Below are positions 1 to 19,868 of a stretch of DNA of 34,629 nucleotides, piece by piece. The notes under the pieces were generated by a model. It did not search any database and had not been told where the DNA came from. It saw nothing but the letters and a program-made list of their open reading frames with translations. How positions within the stretch are numbered: the stretch's first letter is position 1; the number at the start of each line of letters is the position of its first letter. The position numbers and the translations under genes were made by a program. Where the stretch lies: assembly GCA_024695565.1 (NCBI GenBank), contig JAILHX010000109.1, forward strand, positions 1-34,629, in the 5' to 3' direction. Origin of the DNA: Saccharofermentans sp. Lineage in GTDB: Bacteria > Bacillota_A > Clostridia > Saccharofermentanales > Saccharofermentanaceae.

Positions 1-1251
1 GGATACAGATTCATGGAGATTCGGAACCATATATTCATCTTCAAGACCGATCTTTGCAGAGTTGATGGAGCTCTCGAGAAGTTCTCCGTCCTGATGGCAG
101 CTGAACATCTTGAAGACATAGTATGTAGGTGTCTTGATCATCTTATCGCCTTCAGTCAGGATAACAGCCTGAAGAACGTTTACAAGCTGCGCGATATTTG
201 CCATCTTGACGCGCTTGCAGTGCTTGTTAAAGATATTGAGGTTAATGCAGGCGATAAGCGCATCCCTGATCGTATTCTGCTGATAGAGGAAGCCGGGGTT
301 GGTTCCTTCTTCAACGTCATACCATGTGCCCCACTCGTCTACCATGAGACCGATCCTGCAGTCAGGGTCATATCTGTCCATGATGGCAGAATGCTTCTCG
401 ATGAATTCTTCCATGCAGAAGGTCTTGGCAAGAGTCATGTACCATTCTTTGTCATTGAATCCTGTGGCACTTCCCTTGTGATCCCAATCGTAAGGAAGCG
501 TGTAGTAATGGAGTGTGAGTCCATCCATGTAACCGAAGTTCTGAGGGAATGAACCCTGCTGTCTGAAGCACTCGTGAAGCATCGTCTCAGTCCAGTTATA
601 GTCCTTATCCGTAGGACCTACCGCAATCTTCTTGATCTTCTTGTCGGGATTGTACTGCTTTACAAAAGACTGATAGTGCTTATAGAGGTTTGCGTAGTAC
701 TCAGGAACCATGTTGCCTCCGCAGCCCCATGTCTCGTTGCCTACTGCGAAGTAATCTACTGTCCAGGGCTTCTCCCTGCCGTTAGCTCTTCTTAAGTCAG
801 CCATGGGTGACACGCCGTCGAAGGTCATATACTCGACCCACTCGCTCATCTCTCTGACAGTACCGCTTCCGACATTACCGTTTACGTATGTCTTGCAGCC
901 AAGCTGTTCTGCAAGTTCCATGAACTCGTGTGTACCGAAGCTGTTATCTTCGGTAACGCCGCCCCAGTTGGTGTTGATCATCTTCTTTCTGGATTCCTTG
1001 GGACCGATGCCGTCCTTCCAGTGATACTCATCAGCAAAGCATCCGCCCGGCCAGCGGAGAACCGGTATCTTCATCTCCTTCAAGGCTTCAACAACGTCGT
1101 TACGCATTCCGTTCGTATTGGGGATATCGGAATTCTCGCCAACGTAAACACCTTCATAAATGCATCTTCCGAGATGCTCAGAGAAGTGTCCCTGGATCTC
1201 AGGATTGATGTGACCTAATTCCTTACCGGTATTGATGAACAGATTGTACAT
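1..1251 (-). CDS. Alpha-L-arabinofuranosidase, GH51 (3' end beyond window)
   Basis: Glycoside hydrolase that removes terminal arabinofuranosyl residues from arabinoxylan, arabinan or their oligosaccharides. 417 codons are visible in one open frame; the C-terminus lies off the left edge (family members are about 500 residues). The catalytic acid/base is E173 in a GNETWG motif and the likely nucleophile is E306 in MVDEWG, both typical of GH51. The N-terminus starts directly with the catalytic barrel ([13 protein letters not shown]) and has no signal peptide, so the enzyme is probably cytoplasmic and acts on imported oligosaccharides. The ATG is preceded by a GAGGT ribosome binding site that overlaps the end of the upstream gene, which stops 11 bp before, so the two are probably co-transcribed. 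Confidence 0.93.
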
Positions 1252-5126: not shown

Positions 5127-5213
5127 TGGTGCAGATGGCGGGACTTGAACCCGCACGAGATTGCTCCCACTAGCACCTGAAGCTAGCGCGTCTGCCAATT
5201 CCACCACATCTGC
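5127..5213 (-). tRNA. tRNA-Leu (anticodon CAG)
   Basis: The 7-bp acceptor stem GCAGATG / CATCTGC pairs perfectly, with discriminator A and an encoded CCA at 5127-5129. The anticodon arm is CTAGC-TTCAGGT-GCTAG, giving anticodon CAG (reads CUG). The long variable arm and the TGG-AATTGGCAGACGC D-arm are typical of a class II leucine tRNA. The T-arm GTTCAAGTC is present. Confidence 0.96.
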
Positions 5214-8916: not shown

Positions 8917-9657
8917 TTATAGATTATTCAGGATCGAGAGCGTGTCATATATCTTATCAAAATGTATTGAAAGATAGTCTGTTGTAAAATCTTTTAAATC
9001 TTTTTCGGTCTTCTTGTCGGCACTTGATGTAAAAAGCCTCTTCATATCGCATGTGGCAAAGAAGTTCAGTGCCCTTACAGAAGGCTCATCAAGAAGTCTG
9101 TTAAAAGACCTGTTCTGATTGCCCGATGAACTTCCGCCTGAGATATTGATCATGTACTTTCCCTGCTTGTCACCGGTAGACTTATACAGCGGATCGTCAA
9201 GATCGTAGAGGATCGTAAAACCTGCAATGGTAAGAAGCCTCCAGTTAAAAGCAGAATATATAAGAAGATATTTATCCTTATTATTTGCGAGCATGTAGTA
9301 GGCATAAACAGCAAGCTCATATGCTTCCTTAGCATTCTCACTCTGGAGCGTGCAGTCCATAAGACAGGACGAGATGTGAGCAGCAACTGTCATCTGCTCA
9401 AGGCTCTCCATGATCTTCGAATTGCTCTCAATGATCGAAGCATCCTTGAGATAGTAGTAACCGTGAGAAACGGAAACGACAAAATCGCAGAGCATATATG
9501 GCATCGAGAAGCTTCCGAATGAGCTGCCGGGTTTGGCAACTCCCTTGGCACAGATGGTAATAAGACCCCTGTCTGCCGTAAGCACAGCTAAGAGTCTGTC
9601 CTTTTCCTTATACTCGTCGGATTTGATTATTAGCCCGCGGCAATTGAAGGGATCCAT
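8917..9657 (-). CDS. recO: DNA repair protein RecO
   Basis: 246-residue mediator of RecF-pathway recombination; it helps load RecA onto SSB-coated DNA. The N-terminal OB-fold region is recognisable (GLIIKSDEYKEKDRLLAVLT, followed by GLITICAKGV). Many Gram-positive RecO proteins have a four-cysteine zinc ribbon near residues 150-180. Here there is no cysteine between residues 103 and 202, and the matching region reads LDDPLYKSTG and GGSSSGN, so the zinc site appears lost. The ATG overlaps the TAA of ybeY-era by one base (TAATG), so translation is probably coupled. Confidence 0.93.
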   Translation of the reverse strand: MDPFNCRGLIIKSDEYKEKDRLLAVLTADRGLITICAKGVAKPGSSFGSFSMPYMLCDFVVSVSHGYYYLKDASIIESNSKIMESLEQMTVAAHISSCLMDCTLQSENAKEAYELAVYAYYMLANNKDKYLLIYSAFNWRLLTIAGFTILYDLDDPLYKSTGDKQGKYMINISGGSSSGNQNRSFNRLLDEPSVRALNFFATCDMKRLFTSSADKKTEKDLKDFTTDYLSIHFDKIYDTLSILNNL

Positions 9658-11195
9658 TATTCGTCAATATCTTTGCTAAGACCGGTTGAACCGAGCATAG
9701 CGTCATTGTTCTGCCAGTCGTTCCTGACCTTAACATAAAGATCGAGATATACTTTGCAGTCTAACATCTTCTCGATGTTTCTTCTGGCAGCCGTGCCGAT
9801 GCGCTTGATCATCTGCCCGTCCCTGCCGATGATGATGGCCTTGTGGGAATCCCTGTTGCAGATGATATCTGCCTTAATGACTGTCACGGTACGGTCATCA
9901 CCAGAAGTAATCTCGCCGTCATCATTCTTCTCTTTGAACTCGTTGATGATAACGGCTGTTCCGTGAGGGATCTCCTGGTCAGTATAATGAAGCACCTGCT
10001 CACGGATAAGCTCAGCGGCAATGACGCGCTCTGTCTGATCGGTCATGTACTCACTGTCAAAGAGCCTCGGGCCTGCAGGAAGCATCTTGGTAATGACGGA
10101 AAGAAGAAGATCTACGTTCTTGCCTGTTTTCGCGCTTATAGGAACAACATCTTCGAAGTTATAGAGCTCTGAATACTTCTGCGTAAGCGGCAGGAGCTTT
10201 TCCTGGCCTGCTTCATCGTATTTATTGATCGCAAGGATAACCTTCTTGTTGCTCTGCTTAAGAAGGTCCATAAGTTTCTTCTCAACTGCGCCGGGTTCAG
10301 GGAATCTTCCGTCAGCAATAAGAACTACGCAGTCAGCACCGAGAGCAGCCTTGTAAGATCTGTCGACCATGAACTCGCCCATCTTGGAAGTCGGCTTATG
10401 GATACCCGGAGTGTCCGTGAATATGATCTGTGTATCTTCAGTGTTGTAGATAGTTCTGATATTAGTTCTTGTCGTCTGCGGCTTGTGGGATACGATTGCT
10501 ATCTTCATTCCGGTAATGTAATTCAGAAGCGTTGATTTGCCGACATTAGGGCGACCGAGCAAAGCTACCGTTCCGCAGTGCTCACAAGGAGACCCTGCAG
10601 GGATCAGGCCTTCAGACTGAACCTGATCTCTATGGTTGTCCATCTCATAGATGTCTTTTATCTCGTCATCGAAAGCAAGATCTAACGCCTTCATTAGTCT
10701 CTTCTGACGATCGATCATTATTTTCTCATCAGTAGGATCAATGTGGTCATATCCGATCAGGTGAAGAAGAGAATGGGCAATGAGGAACATCGCCTCGCGC
10801 TCAAATGAATGACCGTAGCTCTCAGATTGAGTCTTACATGCCTCGGGATTAATGAGGATATCTCCAAAACAAAGGACCTGATTGCCGTCCTCATCAGTCT
10901 CGAAGTCTCCGCTGTCCGGGATCTCAGCGAACTCTCCTTCTCTTAATTCGAGCATAGGGAATGAGAGACAGTCAGTCTCTTTATCAATATCACGCTGTTC
11001 CCTGTTGATCTCGCGGATCTCACCGGGAGTTACATATGTCAGTGTCGCATAGCCGTCTCTGAGAGATCTGGCTACCTGAGGTGAACAGTAGTCTTCACCT
11101 GTTATCTCTTCACTGAGCCTGATGATAAGGTCATCTAATGAATTCAGAGTATCTTCCGGAAATCCTTCCGCATTGTTAACTACATCAATCCTCAT
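9657..11195 (-). CDS. YbeY endoribonuclease fused to GTPase Era
   Basis: 512 residues in one frame. Residues 1-170 are YbeY, the metal-dependent endoribonuclease of 16S rRNA 3'-end maturation and ribosome quality control; the HxxxHxxxxxH zinc site is H141, H145, H151 (AHSLLHLIGYDH). A linker (about 171-205) with a CEHC motif leads to Era, the GTPase that binds the 3' end of 16S rRNA: P-loop GRPNVGKS at 214-221, DTPG, NKYD, SAK and a C-terminal KH domain with IGRDGQMIKRIG. The only methionine near the junction (M185) has no ribosome binding site before it. The ATG overlaps the pgpH stop as ATGA. In many relatives ybeY and era are separate, with dgkA and cdd between; those two are absent here. 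Confidence 0.95.
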   Translation of the reverse strand: MRIDVVNNAEGFPEDTLNSLDDLIIRLSEEITGEDYCSPQVARSLRDGYATLTYVTPGEIREINREQRDIDKETDCLSFPMLELREGEFAEIPDSGDFETDEDGNQVLCFGDILINPEACKTQSESYGHSFEREAMFLIAHSLLHLIGYDHIDPTDEKIMIDRQKRLMKALDLAFDDEIKDIYEMDNHRDQVQSEGLIPAGSPCEHCGTVALLGRPNVGKSTLLNYITGMKIAIVSHKPQTTRTNIRTIYNTEDTQIIFTDTPGIHKPTSKMGEFMVDRSYKAALGADCVVLIADGRFPEPGAVEKKLMDLLKQSNKKVILAINKYDEAGQEKLLPLTQKYSELYNFEDVVPISAKTGKNVDLLLSVITKMLPAGPRLFDSEYMTDQTERVIAAELIREQVLHYTDQEIPHGTAVIINEFKEKNDDGEITSGDDRTVTVIKADIICNRDSHKAIIIGRDGQMIKRIGTAARRNIEKMLDCKVYLDLYVKVRNDWQNNDAMLGSTGLSKDIDE

Positions 11196-13264
11196 TCAGG
11201 GTACTTGATCCTTTCGTGGAAGACGCCTGCATAAACCTGCTTGAACGCTATGACGATGTTTTCGAGGTCATCGAAAGAAAGACCTGAATTAATAAGCTGA
11301 TCCTGATCGATCTTATCCTTGATAAGCGCACGGATAAGCTGTTCTGCGCTCTGAACGTCTGTTGTCTTCATTGATCTTACAGCTGCCTCGCAAGTATCTG
11401 CGAGCATAACGATAGCCGATTCCTTGGAAGACGGAATATGTCCTCTGTATCTGAAGTTGTTGATATCCGGCGGTTCCAATCCCTTGGCCTTGGCATCGTC
11501 AACAGCCTTGCGGTAGAAATACGAAGGATATGTCGTGCCGTGATGTTCATCGATGATCTTGATGATTGCGTTGGGCAGTCTCTCCTTCTTGGCAAGCTTA
11601 ACACCGTCTTCCGGGTGCTTTGTGATTATCTGGACGCTCTCCATAACAGTGAGCCTGTCATGGGGATTGATGCCGTCATGCTGGTTCTCTGTGAAGTATT
11701 CGGGATTCTCGAGCTTACCGATATCGTGATAGTATGCCGCTACCTTACAAAGAAGTGCGTCAGCTCCGATAGCTTCAGCTGCAGAGTCTGCGAGGTTAGC
11801 TACCATCATGGAGTGGGAATGTGTACCGGAAGCTTCAAGGAACAGTCTCTTGAGCAGATACTGACCGGGCTGGCTCAGGCTGATGAGCTTAACAGGTGAA
11901 GCAGCATTGCTTACGAGTTCATAGATAGGAGACAGACCGATAGCTGCTACGAGCGAAGCGATACAGCTTACGAATGTATAGATGAATGAACTTAAGTATT
12001 CCGTTCTGGCATTACCGATAAAGAAATTGAAAGTAAGGCTCGCAGCAATGGTTGCAAGCGTCGGGAAGAAGATCAGGGCAGCATTGTTGATGATCTTGTC
12101 CGTTCTTCCCGCAAAGATCGAGCAGAGGATGATCCCAACGAGACTTACGAAGAACATCTCGGGATCAAATCCGTACATCGGCCAGATAAACAGAAGGTTT
12201 ACGACTGACAGGATGATACCGTCCTGTGTGCCGAGATATGTCGCACAAACAGCCGTAAAGAAGATTACGATGCTCAGGAGCGGAGATATGCTCGACAGAT
12301 AAACCGATGCTCCGACCGGAATAAGGAACGTAACGATGAGCATGTAGAATACCGGCAGGCTGATCTTAAGCTTCTTACGTTCGATATTAAGATAAACGAG
12401 CGCGCATGCAGAGATTACCGCAACATACAAAACAGCTCTTAAGAAGATGACTATGTCAAAAGTTGATTCTCTGATGAGCTCAAGTTCAACGAGATTGCTG
12501 TAAACGTGCTCGTCAATTATCGCTCCGGCCTCAACAAGTCTTGAACCCTTATCGATCATGACAGGATCGTTGATAACTGCAATATAAGCATTGTTAGCAG
12601 AATCCGCAGTTGCCTTCTCATCGTAGATAGTATTAGGTTCGAGGATCGTAGTAAGAACTATCCTCATGCAGTCTGCATACTTCTCATATGAAGGATTCGA
12701 TTCAATGAAGCCCGTGATCTGCTCATCGATCTTATCAGCAAGGACCACCTCATTAACATCACCGAGCATAATGAGCTCTGCCTGGGAAGTCGTCTTCTCT
12801 CTGATATATGTGAATGTATGATTGGACATCTCGAAAAGAACAAGGAGGTCGTCTTTATTGATAGATACCTTCAAGGTCTGCTCAACGCTGAAAGAAAGCT
12901 GTGTGGCAGCCTCACCGGGAGTGATGAGATTCGGCGTGTTCCTCGCCTGTGTGTAGGTCTGTCTCTCCTGCTCGGCAAGGTCAAAGAAGTCATCTACTCT
13001 GTCAATGCAGTCCTGTGACTGTTTATCCGATCTTACGAAAATGCTCTCAACGGTGTTTCTCGCATTGATAGCTCTTCTCTCAGTCTCATATGTGTCAGCG
13101 AAAGTTCTCGGAGCATAAATATCCTGATTTGCTATTGAACCTACTTCGTAGTCATAACTGACAGGAAGTGATCCGTAGAATACCAGGAAAACAATAGTAA
13201 GTGCAGCAAGCACCAATGATATTATCTGATGGAACTTAGGTTTTGCGGACTTGGTATTACTCAT
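11192..13264 (-). CDS. pgpH: 7TM-HD cyclic-di-AMP phosphodiesterase PgpH-like (YqfF)
   Basis: 690-residue membrane protein. A first membrane segment (about 17-36) is followed by an extracytoplasmic 7TMR-HDED domain, then about seven membrane segments (290-460) and a cytoplasmic HD domain. The HD signature H513-D514 lies in YYHDIGKLENP, with HSMMVANLAD before it. In Listeria and Bacillus this family hydrolyses cyclic-di-AMP and so affects potassium balance, cell wall and stress responses. Its start overlaps the phoH stop as ATGA and its stop overlaps the ybeY-era start as ATGA, so the three are tightly coupled. Confidence 0.93.
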   Translation of the reverse strand: MSNTKSAKPKFHQIISLVLAALTIVFLVFYGSLPVSYDYEVGSIANQDIYAPRTFADTYETERRAINARNTVESIFVRSDKQSQDCIDRVDDFFDLAEQERQTYTQARNTPNLITPGEAATQLSFSVEQTLKVSINKDDLLVLFEMSNHTFTYIREKTTSQAELIMLGDVNEVVLADKIDEQITGFIESNPSYEKYADCMRIVLTTILEPNTIYDEKATADSANNAYIAVINDPVMIDKGSRLVEAGAIIDEHVYSNLVELELIRESTFDIVIFLRAVLYVAVISACALVYLNIERKKLKISLPVFYMLIVTFLIPVGASVYLSSISPLLSIVIFFTAVCATYLGTQDGIILSVVNLLFIWPMYGFDPEMFFVSLVGIILCSIFAGRTDKIINNAALIFFPTLATIAASLTFNFFIGNARTEYLSSFIYTFVSCIASLVAAIGLSPIYELVSNAASPVKLISLSQPGQYLLKRLFLEASGTHSHSMMVANLADSAAEAIGADALLCKVAAYYHDIGKLENPEYFTENQHDGINPHDRLTVMESVQIITKHPEDGVKLAKKERLPNAIIKIIDEHHGTTYPSYFYRKAVDDAKAKGLEPPDINNFRYRGHIPSSKESAIVMLADTCEAAVRSMKTTDVQSAEQLIRALIKDKIDQDQLINSGLSFDDLENIVIAFKQVYAGVFHERIKYPE

Positions 13265-14205
13265 AATTCGCCTTTGCTCCTCTTCGCTTCCTCATAGGCT
13301 TTAACGATCCTTGCAACAAGGCTGTTTCTTACGATATCGGAATCATTGAGACTTACGATCTTAATGCCTTCAACATTAGGCAGTACGGTGATCGCATCCT
13401 TAAGACCGCTCTCGATTCCTCTTGGCAGGTCGATCTGCGTAAAGTCACCGCAGACACAGGCTCTGCAGTTTACTCCGAGTCTTGTAAGGAACATCTTCAT
13501 CTGTTCAGGAGTTGTATTCTGAGCTTCATCAAGAAGCACAAAACAATCGTCCAAGTTTCTGCCTCTCATAAATGCCAGAGGGGATACTTCGATAACGCCC
13601 TTGTCGTAGTAGCGCTCGAACATCTCCTGCCCCAAGAGCGCCGAGAGAGCATCATAGATAGGACGCATATAGGGATTGACCTTCTCCTCGATATCACCGG
13701 GCAGAAATCCCAAACGCTCGCCTGCTTCGATCGCAGGTCTTGTTAATATGATCCTTGATACTTCCCTTGCCTTAAGAGCCTTAACCGCCATCGCAACTCC
13801 GAGGAACGTTTTACCGGTTCCTGCAGGACCAGCGCAGATAACTAATTCAGACTGCTTGAGGGAATCAACATAAAGTCTCTGCCCAAGTGTTCTTGCCTTA
13901 ATGGCTCTGCCTGAAGGAGTCATGTAGAAGACTTCATCAGAAGTCTTAAGGAACTCTTCAAGTCTTCCTTCCTTGGAAAGATTCATGATATAGAGGATAT
14001 CCGTCTCATCAATGGCGGAATCATCAGCGAGCTTATCGAGAGCCAAAAGAGCATCCTTCGCACAAACGACATTCTCGGAATCGCCCGTAATAACAAAGCC
14101 CTTGCCGTCATGCTCGATATCGACATCAAAAAAGCCGGCTATTCTTGCTGTATAGACACTTGCCGTCTGGGTTGAATTACTAAGATGTTCGATTCTCTCT
14201 TCCAA
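13261..14205 (-). CDS. PhoH-like ATPase
   Basis: 314-residue PhoH family protein, a RecA-fold ATPase linked to RNA handling and usually encoded next to ybeY. Walker A is GPAGTGKT at residues 126-133, Walker B is VLLDEAQN, and the conserved ILTRPAIEAGERLGFLPGD stretch is present. An N-terminal region of about 100 residues resembles the small domain of this family. I chose the TTG start at 14205 because an AGGAGAG ribosome binding site lies 6-7 nt before it. This is the first gene of the phoH-pgpH-ybeY/era-recO operon and has its own promoter just upstream. Confidence 0.93.
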   Translation of the reverse strand: MEERIEHLSNSTQTASVYTARIAGFFDVDIEHDGKGFVITGDSENVVCAKDALLALDKLADDSAIDETDILYIMNLSKEGRLEEFLKTSDEVFYMTPSGRAIKARTLGQRLYVDSLKQSELVICAGPAGTGKTFLGVAMAVKALKAREVSRIILTRPAIEAGERLGFLPGDIEEKVNPYMRPIYDALSALLGQEMFERYYDKGVIEVSPLAFMRGRNLDDCFVLLDEAQNTTPEQMKMFLTRLGVNCRACVCGDFTQIDLPRGIESGLKDAITVLPNVEGIKIVSLNDSDIVRNSLVARIVKAYEEAKRSKGEL

Positions 14206-18404: not shown

Positions 18405-19313
18405 ATGAAGATTGATTATTTTGTAGAAAGTGAATATAACGGCTGCGAGATCCAGCAGATCATGAGGCGCGAGTTCAAGATGAGCACCACCTGGGTCAAG
18501 CGCGTAAAACTGTACGGAACCGTTGAATTGAACGGGGTTCATGCCAGAGTCAAAGACCCGGTTAAGACCGGTGACAGGCTCTACTTCGAATATGAAGACA
18601 ATTCAGCTGATCTTAACTGCCCTCCGAACGTCAGCATCCTATTCGAAAATGATCACTATGCAGTGATAAACAAGCCTGCAGGCATGGTTACTCATCCTTC
18701 GCATAATCATCTGGATGATTCACTCCTTACCGCACTATCCGAAAACACCCTGCACCCGGTCATGCGTTTGGACAGAGAGACTTCAGGTCTTCTCATAGTT
18801 GCCAAGGACGGCTATTCGCACAACATGATGGCCACGGCAGATATAAAGAAATCCTATAAGGCTCTTTGCTACGGCAAGTTTGATCCCCAAGACGGAACAT
18901 TGGACCTCCCTATTGCCAGGCGCCCTGATTCGGTCATGATCAGAGACTGTGTTCCTGACGGCAAGCCTTCTGTTACTCACTATAAAACATTAGAGTATTA
19001 TGCTGATGCAGGCATCTCGCTCGTGGAGTTTGAGCTTGAGACCGGAAGATGCCACCAGATAAGGACGCACTGCTGCCATGTCGGTCATCCGCTTTTAGGC
19101 GACGGTCTCTACGGTCCCCTGTCTGATGACAACCCTAATGAGAAGCTTGCGCCTTCGGCATCGGTTTTCGACGGCAAGATAGGAAGAGTTGCACTTCACG
19201 CTTATAAGATCGAATACGAAGATCCGTTTGATAGCGGCAGAATAAAAGTCTTCGAGGCAGCTCTTCCCGAAGACATGCAGAAAGTCATATCAGAAATATC
19301 ACATGATACCTGA
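18405..19313 (+). CDS. RluA-family pseudouridine synthase
   Basis: 302 residues with an N-terminal S4-like RNA-binding part (MKIDYFVESEYNGCEIQQIM onward) and a RluA catalytic domain. The catalytic D123 lies in HPVMRLDRETSG, and the conserved ELETGRCHQIRTH segment follows. It is a second RluA-family enzyme in the window and may act on rRNA or tRNA; the target cannot be read from sequence. It is divergent from rny and overlaps the convergent membrane protein gene by 15 bp. It lacks a visible ribosome binding site. Confidence 0.92.
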   Translation: MKIDYFVESEYNGCEIQQIMRREFKMSTTWVKRVKLYGTVELNGVHARVKDPVKTGDRLYFEYEDNSADLNCPPNVSILFENDHYAVINKPAGMVTHPSHNHLDDSLLTALSENTLHPVMRLDRETSGLLIVAKDGYSHNMMATADIKKSYKALCYGKFDPQDGTLDLPIARRPDSVMIRDCVPDGKPSVTHYKTLEYYADAGISLVEFELETGRCHQIRTHCCHVGHPLLGDGLYGPLSDDNPNEKLAPSASVFDGKIGRVALHAYKIEYEDPFDSGRIKVFEAALPEDMQKVISEISHDT

Positions 19314-19868
19314 TTTGATGGTGCTGACGTCCATTACGCCCTTGCGGTCCAAGTCTTCAAAAACCTTGATCTTGCCTCCGGTCTTAACAAGGATGACGCC
19401 GTCACCGGGATTAACTCTCTCAAATACATCCTTCATGACTGCATAGCTCATGAGAGTCTGATCCTTTTCCTCGAGATAGATATCGAAAACATACTGATAA
19501 GTATAGTTTCTGTTATCCTTCTGCTCCTGGATCCTCTGCGATGCAAGGACAACGCCCTTTATTATTCCTTTGTAGCCTGCAAAAAGATCGAAAATCTGTT
19601 TGCCCGTGATGAACGCACCTGCGCCTATAACCACGAGAGCTATTATCTTAAATATCAGAATGTCTGAAGGACCCAGAAGTACAACGCCAAAGAGAAATAG
19701 GCATCCGGTAAAGGCAATGATCATGAGGATCAGGAATGCCATAGCATCTTTAATGCGCTGCTTCTTTACGCGGCTTAAGAGTTCCTTGTCGCTTTCTTTG
19801 ATGTCGTCGAAAACCAGATCGCTCGCAGGTATCGACTTCTTAAGATAATCCGAATAATGATCAGCCAT
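19299..19868 (-). CDS. Membrane protein of unknown function
   Basis: 189 residues. A charged N-terminal part (about 1-40) is followed by two adjacent hydrophobic segments (about 43-64 and 69-90) and a cytoplasmic or outer beta-rich domain with YTYQYVFDIYL and a NPGDGVILVK segment, somewhat like DUF3592-type proteins; that resemblance is weak. The ATG has a good AAGGAG ribosome binding site and lies 17 bp after the recN stop, so it is probably the last gene of the nadK-argR-recN operon. I assign no function. Confidence 0.8.
   Translation of the reverse strand: MADHYSDYLKKSIPASDLVFDDIKESDKELLSRVKKQRIKDAMAFLILMIIAFTGCLFLFGVVLLGPSDILIFKIIALVVIGAGAFITGKQIFDLFAGYKGIIKGVVLASQRIQEQKDNRNYTYQYVFDIYLEEKDQTLMSYAVMKDVFERVNPGDGVILVKTGGKIKVFEDLDRKGVMDVSTIKSGIM

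What the first reader, a model, noticed from the sequence alone, without database searches (positions are those of the whole stretch)
9657..11195. YbeY and Era fused in a single polypeptide
One uninterrupted 512-codon frame holds a complete YbeY (H141, H145, H151 metal site) and a complete Era GTPase with KH domain. Both act at the 3' end of 16S rRNA, and YbeY is reported to bind Era in other bacteria, so the fusion would lock together a nuclease and the factor that binds its substrate. dgkA and cdd, often between them, are missing. No ribosome binding site precedes the junction methionine M185.
Basis: partly seen in the sequence, partly recalled or inferred. Interest (0 to 1): 0.72.

Follow-up and report, generated by a model that had tools for sequence, protein, structure and literature searches.

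The report
YbeY–Era fusion protein, already described
In this Clostridia bacterium two helpers of ribosome assembly, YbeY and Era, are encoded as one protein; the joining is real and shared by many relatives, but such fusions are already in print, and what joining them achieves is still unknown.

Summary
One 512-codon frame (minus strand, 9657-11195) encodes a complete YbeY followed by a complete Era (G domain plus KH). It is not a sequencing error: 25 of the 31 loci found keep the full-length frame, two of them from records titled as strains, and the 33-residue linker is under protein-level selection (pN/pS 0.20). Internal initiation at M185 is unlikely: it has no good ribosome-binding site here, and 7 of 34 fused rows of its clade have no start codon in the junction. 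In 17 of 17 fused genomes tested the fused YbeY is the only YbeY. In its order at least 117 of 188 genomes carry the fusion. A second lineage (Anaerovibrio/Selenomonas) fused separately: one clade of all fused rows is rejected (AU p = 3e-5). The architecture is already in print (Wood 2019; Gruffaz and Smirnov 2023). Additions here: order-wide conservation, linkers from about 2 to about 90 residues, abutting unfused neighbours, and near-complete absence of dgkA in the order, which suggest fusion by stop loss.

The parts
9657..11195 (-). ybeY-era fusion gene, 512 codons
   Evidence: 25 full-length relatives at 84-90% identity
10680..11195 (-). YbeY module, residues 1-172
   Evidence: Pfam PF02130 at 51-170, TIGR00043 at 51-173; Foldseek to 7y7o, TM 0.80 by target
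10743..10775 (-). HxxxHxxxxxH metal site H141/H145/H151
   Evidence: motif present in 51 of 51 non-redundant fused proteins
10581..10679 (-). linker, residues 173-205, containing M185 (ATG 10641-10643)
   Evidence: pLDDT below 50 at residues 184-195
9681..10580 (-). Era module, residues 206-505 (G domain and KH)
   Evidence: NF000908 206-505; Foldseek to 7c1o and 3iev, TM 0.79-0.80 by target
9711..9884 (-). KH domain of Era, residues 438-495, with GRDG loop
   Evidence: PF07650, motif check
11192..13264 (-). 7TM-HD protein (PgpH-like; the name PgpH is recalled), upstream gene, overlaps the fusion start by ATGA
13261..14205 (-). PhoH/YbeZ-like ATPase gene, upstream
   Evidence: PF02562
8917..9657 (-). 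recO, downstream, start overlaps the fusion stop (TAATG)

Best explanation
A bona fide YbeY-Era fusion: YbeY is encoded as the N-terminal part of Era, joined by a probably flexible linker of about 33 residues. Shown by sequence: one conserved frame, both halves complete with their motifs intact, linker translated and under selection, no second YbeY in the relatives tested. Inferred: the fusion arose by loss of a stop codon between genes that already abutted, dgkA and cdd having left the junction. Inferred: it works as one tethered 30S-platform assembly factor, in which the Era KH domain docks on the 3' end of 16S rRNA and YbeY is delivered at 1:1 ratio to the same site, to help seat uS11 and possibly to cut the precursor 3' tail.
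For: Intact frame and both families over curated cut-offs. Of 31 loci, 25 keep one full-length fused frame. pN/pS pooled over 24 sequences (the window and 23 relatives): YbeY core 0.12, linker 0.20, Era 0.06. 7 of 34 fused rows of the window's clade have no ATG/GTG/TTG in the junction. The fused copy is the only YbeY in 17 of 17 fused genomes. Window clade of 34 rows all fused, SH-aLRT 100. 13 of 13 unfused rows sampled in the order clade have the two genes abutting, overlapping or a few dozen bases apart; two unfused rows from outside, L140 and L145, carry dgkA (L140 also cdd) in the gap; dgkA is found in only 4 of 188 genomes of the order, all four unfused. Predicted model: both domains recognisable, linker poor, pTM 0.49, so no fixed arrangement. 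Era-YbeY contact, and cooperation on uS11, are in print.
Against: No expression, proteomic or activity data. Cleavage of the protein in the linker cannot be excluded. 12 of 34 clade rows have some in-frame start with an SD-like run of 4 nt or more in the junction, at unconserved positions. The model gives no defined YbeY-Era interface. dgkA is also missing from most unfused members of the order, so its loss is not specific to fusion. The published E. coli and S. aureus contacts are weak or partial (2 of 4 two-hybrid combinations; 'quite weakly'). The role in uS11 seating is carried over from other organisms.
Confidence: 0.7

Rival explanations
1. The fusion serves 16S rRNA 3'-end cleavage: Era holds the pre-16S 3' end through its KH domain and positions it for the tethered YbeY nuclease.
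For: HxxxHxxxxxH in 51 of 51 fused rows, R68 invariant in A1. YbeY is required for 16S 3' maturation in E. coli and B. subtilis and is proposed to be guided by Era and S11 (PMC6738653 passages; PMC12320835 passages; PMC6943124 passages).
Against: The Era review argues that Era leaves before the final 3' processing (PMC10582724 passages). In human cells loss of YBEY gave no detectable 12S misprocessing (PMC7515705 passages).
Confidence: 0.3
2. The joining is neutral: two co-operonic, abutting genes lost a stop codon and the fused form is tolerated without functional gain.
For: Linkers vary from about 2 to about 90 residues among fused relatives, and relatives of both fused lineages stay unfused with abutting genes.
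Against: Fused state kept throughout the window's 34-row clade; all fused rows do not form one clade. Neither excludes neutrality.
Confidence: 0.3
3. Two products are made from this frame: full-length, plus Era alone from an internal start at M185 or by proteolysis in the linker.
For: M185 is Met in 23 of 24 sequences; 12 of 34 clade rows have some junction start with a 4-nt or longer SD-like run. For Anaerovibrio, the protein collection lists both ~490-aa fused proteins and ~297-aa Era proteins; one such pair (P0247, P0326) has the same longest-contig length.
Against: Window M185 has only a 3-nt SD-like run; L020 has Leu there; 7 of 34 clade rows have no possible start codon in the junction; 43 of 52 unfused era genes have an SD-like run of 4 nt or more before their nearest start.
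Confidence: 0.08
4. Sequencing or assembly error that removed a stop codon or frameshift.
For: None found for the window; one relative (L024/G130) has its frame broken inside Era near a contig end, and G087 has a stop in the YbeY part.
Against: Same frame in 25 of 31 loci, including two records titled as strains rather than MAGs, and linker under protein-level selection.
Confidence: 0.005

Closest known systems
YbeY-Era fusions of Clostridia, Selenomonadales and Thermoleophilum album (Gruffaz and Smirnov 2023, PMC10582724, passages; Wood et al. 2019, PMC6738653, passages; author names of the review are recalled)
   Same: Same domain order, YbeY N-terminal to Era; the review calls it by far the most frequent Era fusion and lists how complex Era proteins work as an open question.
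   Different: Nothing essential. The passages I saw give no conservation, linker or gene-context data for these fusions; those for this order come from the present calls.
Anaerovibrio/Selenomonas YbeY-Era fusion (L148; P0241-P0300)
   Same: Same architecture; one Selenomonas record is already named 'rRNA maturation RNase YbeY/GTP-binding protein Era'.
   Different: Separate origin: all 51 fused rows as one clade rejected, p 2.7e-5; a different linker and unfused near relatives.
Stand-alone Era (1ega, 3iev, 9jkp) and YbeY (1xm5, 1oz9, 7y7o)
   Same: Sequence, fold and motifs of each half.
   Different: Separate proteins; no chain among the 52 listed has a best stretch spanning both halves.

Membership tests
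YbeY endoribonuclease (UPF0054, TIGR00043) | Match above curated score | tested here: met
   TIGR00043 113.3 bits against 45; PF02130 113.8 against 25
YbeY endoribonuclease (UPF0054, TIGR00043) | HxxxHxxxxxH zinc site and the Arg before TDxLSFP (motif meanings recalled) | tested here: met
   HSLLHLIGYDH and RDIDKETDCLSFP in the window; HxxxHxxxxxH in 51 of 51 fused rows, the Arg/LSFP pattern in 48 of 51
YbeY endoribonuclease (UPF0054, TIGR00043) | Single-strand endoribonuclease activity or uS11 binding | not testable with these tools
   -
Era GTPase (TIGR00436, NF000908) | Match above curated score | tested here: met
   353 against 237 and 273 against 116 bits
Era GTPase (TIGR00436, NF000908) | G1, DTPG, NKxD and KH GxxG motifs (meanings recalled) | tested here: met
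   GRPNVGKS, DTPG, NKYD, IIGRDGQMI in the window; in 51, 50, 48 and 50 of 51 fused rows; the three without NKxD read NRED
Era GTPase (TIGR00436, NF000908) | GTP hydrolysis and binding of the 16S rRNA 3' end | not testable with these tools
   -
Known YbeY-Era fusion type | YbeY N-terminal to Era in one uninterrupted frame | tested here: met
   described in PMC10582724 and PMC6738653
Known YbeY-Era fusion type | Made as one ~57 kDa polypeptide in the cell | not testable with these tools
   indirect support only

The most novel reading that the evidence does not exclude
The tether is functional: Era and YbeY must act simultaneously and within a short distance on the nascent 30S platform. Natural fusions with linkers of only about 2-7 residues beyond the domain models (L112, L113, L114, L116) would then fix the YbeY C-terminus beside the Era G-domain N-terminus, giving a direct distance restraint on a joint YbeY-Era assembly state, and the fused organisms would be the place to capture it.
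Probability: 0.3. Interest if true: 0.6.

Novelty: already known. Interest (0 to 1): 0.3.

Why it matters
The review that describes these fusions lists how they work as an open question. If the tether matters, this order, with its natural range of linker lengths and unfused close relatives, makes the question of whether Era and YbeY act at the same time on the 30S subunit directly testable. Otherwise it is an ordinary fusion of two neighbouring genes whose products are already known to interact.

Tried and rejected
Sequencing error: rejected. Internal start at M185: disfavoured, not fully excluded. A zinc-knuckle reading of CEHC at residues 204-207 at the end of the linker: rejected, since the cysteines are replaced in many fused relatives (HVG, HSG, AKHCG). 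A hidden second YbeY: none in 17 of 17 fused genomes; the G021 match is split in two within one frame by an insertion. A second Era: other listed hits in 5 of 5 genomes are far weaker (29-40% identity, G domain only; 10 matches listed per genome). One origin for all 51 fused rows: rejected (p 2.7e-5); one origin for the 49 rows of the order: not rejected (p 0.31), so varied linkers do not prove repeated fusion inside the order. The tree is a quick one with long branches (L128 among them) and an unresolved backbone inside the order. Long Era frames outside the order in G289, G264, G201, G192 and G335 were fetched and proved unfused. A confident YbeY-Era interface in the predicted model: not obtained (pTM 0.49).

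Rows dropped: of 163 loci plus the window slice, 150 had both a YbeY and an Era hit and were classified; 14 were dropped for lacking one; 47 of the 150 were removed as near-duplicates (many loci are the same genomes fetched twice), leaving 103. Loci outside the order were chosen mostly from high-scoring, in-frame-joined hits, so abutting pairs are over-represented there; the label 'abut' also covers L130, whose genes are about 160 codons apart.

Full report
What is there. The frame lies on the minus strand, 11195 down to 9657, 512 codons with no interruption. Its ATG overlaps the stop of a 7TM-HD gene (ATGA) and its stop overlaps the start of recO (TAATG), so it sits in a tight run: RNase Y, YmdB, LspA, RluD-type synthase, PhoH, 7TM-HD, YbeY-Era, RecO. 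Both halves pass curated cut-offs and keep their motifs. In a predicted model the ten-residue blocks of residues 1-170 have pLDDT 82-96; the Era part ranges from 39 to 92, lowest at 230-247; the linker is poor (below 50 at 184-195) and pTM is 0.49, so the relative placement of the two parts is not defined. The model matches Era 7c1o/3iev and YbeY 7y7o.

It is not an error. Of 31 loci found in the species-level genome collection, 25 encode the full-length fused frame at 84-90% identity; L024 has its frame broken within Era near a contig end, L025 is cut by a contig end, L028 is a C-terminal fragment from the same genome as L024, and L029-L031 are distant GTPases. Two of the sources are titled as strains (AB4001, YAD3003). 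The best 120 of 7984 hits of the protein search all list both the YbeY and the KH Pfam domain, the window's own protein being the first. Over 24 sequences (window included) pN/pS is 0.12 for the YbeY core, 0.20 for the linker and 0.06 for Era; synonymous sites are near saturation, so these are rough, but the linker clearly evolves as translated protein.

Is it one polypeptide? Residue 185 is Met in 23 of 24 sequences and Leu in L020; further out the Met is kept in some fused relatives and lost in many. In the window it has at best a 3-nt SD-like run. In the window's clade of 34 non-redundant fused rows, 7 have no ATG, GTG or TTG in the junction, and 12 have some in-frame start with an SD-like run of 4 nt or more, at unconserved places; by comparison 43 of 52 unfused era genes have such a run at their nearest start (counts read from its table). 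The fused YbeY is the only YbeY in 17 of 17 fused genomes tested.

Distribution. In the order of AB4001 (unnamed by the tool; Saccharofermentanales is my guess from record titles) at least 117 of 188 genomes have one open frame over both halves; of the 123 rows that I tallied, 4 others have one or more stops between or within the halves and 2 are broken or cut by contig ends. In 391 genomes of the class and 398 of the phylum (lists capped; E limits 1e-60 and 1e-70), I verified fused frames outside the order clade in two genomes, G270 and G912. The G912 kind belongs with Anaerovibrio and Selenomonas, where one record is already named as YbeY/Era; JGI names some of the window's own kind so too. 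A tree of 103 rows without the linker puts the window in a wholly fused clade of 34 (SH-aLRT 100) inside an order clade of 62 rows (49 fused, 13 not). One clade of all 51 fused rows is rejected (p 2.7e-5); one clade of the 49 in the order is not (p 0.31).

How it arose. In 13 of 13 unfused rows sampled in the order clade ybeY and era abut, overlap or lie a few dozen bases apart. Of 39 unfused rows from outside, 12 have them 105-559 codons apart and 27 fall in the abutting classes, a sample biased towards in-frame neighbours. In L140 the gap holds dgkA and cdd, in L145 a dgkA-PAP2 gene. In the order dgkA (PF01219) is found in 4 of 188 genomes, G182-G185, on another contig than era; G182 and G184 were verified as unfused from their DNA, G183 and G185 by the match ranges. 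Most unfused members of the order lack dgkA as well, so its loss comes before or apart from fusion. Removal of the intervening genes, then stop loss, is the simplest path; this is inference from distribution. Linkers are 20-42 residues in the window's clade, about 2-7 in L112-L114 and L116, 18-46 in most other fused rows, and 86-92 in L084 and L111; the 141 computed for L115 includes part of its interrupted YbeY.

What it does. Era-YbeY contact is in print for E. coli (PMC5101352, passages; positive in two of four two-hybrid combinations) and S. aureus (PMC6738653, passages; described as weak), and uS11 and ERAL1 contact for human YBEY (PMC7515705, passages). The Era review proposes that the two may cooperate in installing uS11 and argues that Era is gone before final 3' processing (PMC10582724, passages). 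I therefore favour a tethered platform-assembly factor over a dedicated 3'-end processing machine, without direct evidence in this organism.

Novelty. Wood et al. [quoted passage not shown] Paper searches made. The finding is therefore already known in kind; the order-wide survey, linker selection, linker range and dgkA distribution are additions that I did not see in the passages read.

Noticed in passing
order of G001, 188 genomes; relatives G001-G005: Prokaryotic diacylglycerol kinase (PF01219, dgkA) is found in only 4 of 188 genomes of the order, G182-G185; completeness of the genomes was not told.
   Followed up: partly
L112, L113, L114, L116: Fused YbeY-Era with linkers of only about 2-7 residues beyond the domain models, natural near-zero-linker fusions.
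   Followed up: partly
L115 (G021): Fused protein of 621 aa with a repetitive Lys/Gln/Ala-rich insertion that splits the YbeY domain before the metal site, and a long acidic linker.
   Followed up: no
L070, L071, L073, L074, L077, L082, L099, L104, L131, L132, L136: ybeY and era lie in the same frame with a stop and a short spacer between them in these unfused relatives.
   Followed up: partly
P0247/P0326 and P0307/P0324 (Anaerovibrio): A fused and an Era-only protein (first pair), and two lengths of Era (second pair), share the same longest-contig length, which suggests that annotation may trim some fusions to Era alone; not verified on the DNA.
   Followed up: no
L125 (G087): A TAA stop lies in the N-terminal YbeY part of an otherwise fused frame; not examined further.
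   Followed up: no
L058, L059, L060: The Era NKxD motif reads NRED in these three fused relatives.
   Followed up: no
L145:3904-4605: dgkA is itself fused to a PAP2-like domain in this unfused relative.
   Followed up: no
window 5130-5213: Only Rfam hit in the window at gathering score: a tRNA on the minus strand.
   Followed up: no
window 13-552, 1263-2594 and 19299-19868: Frames of 179, 443 and 189 aa without a Pfam match at E 0.001.
   Followed up: no
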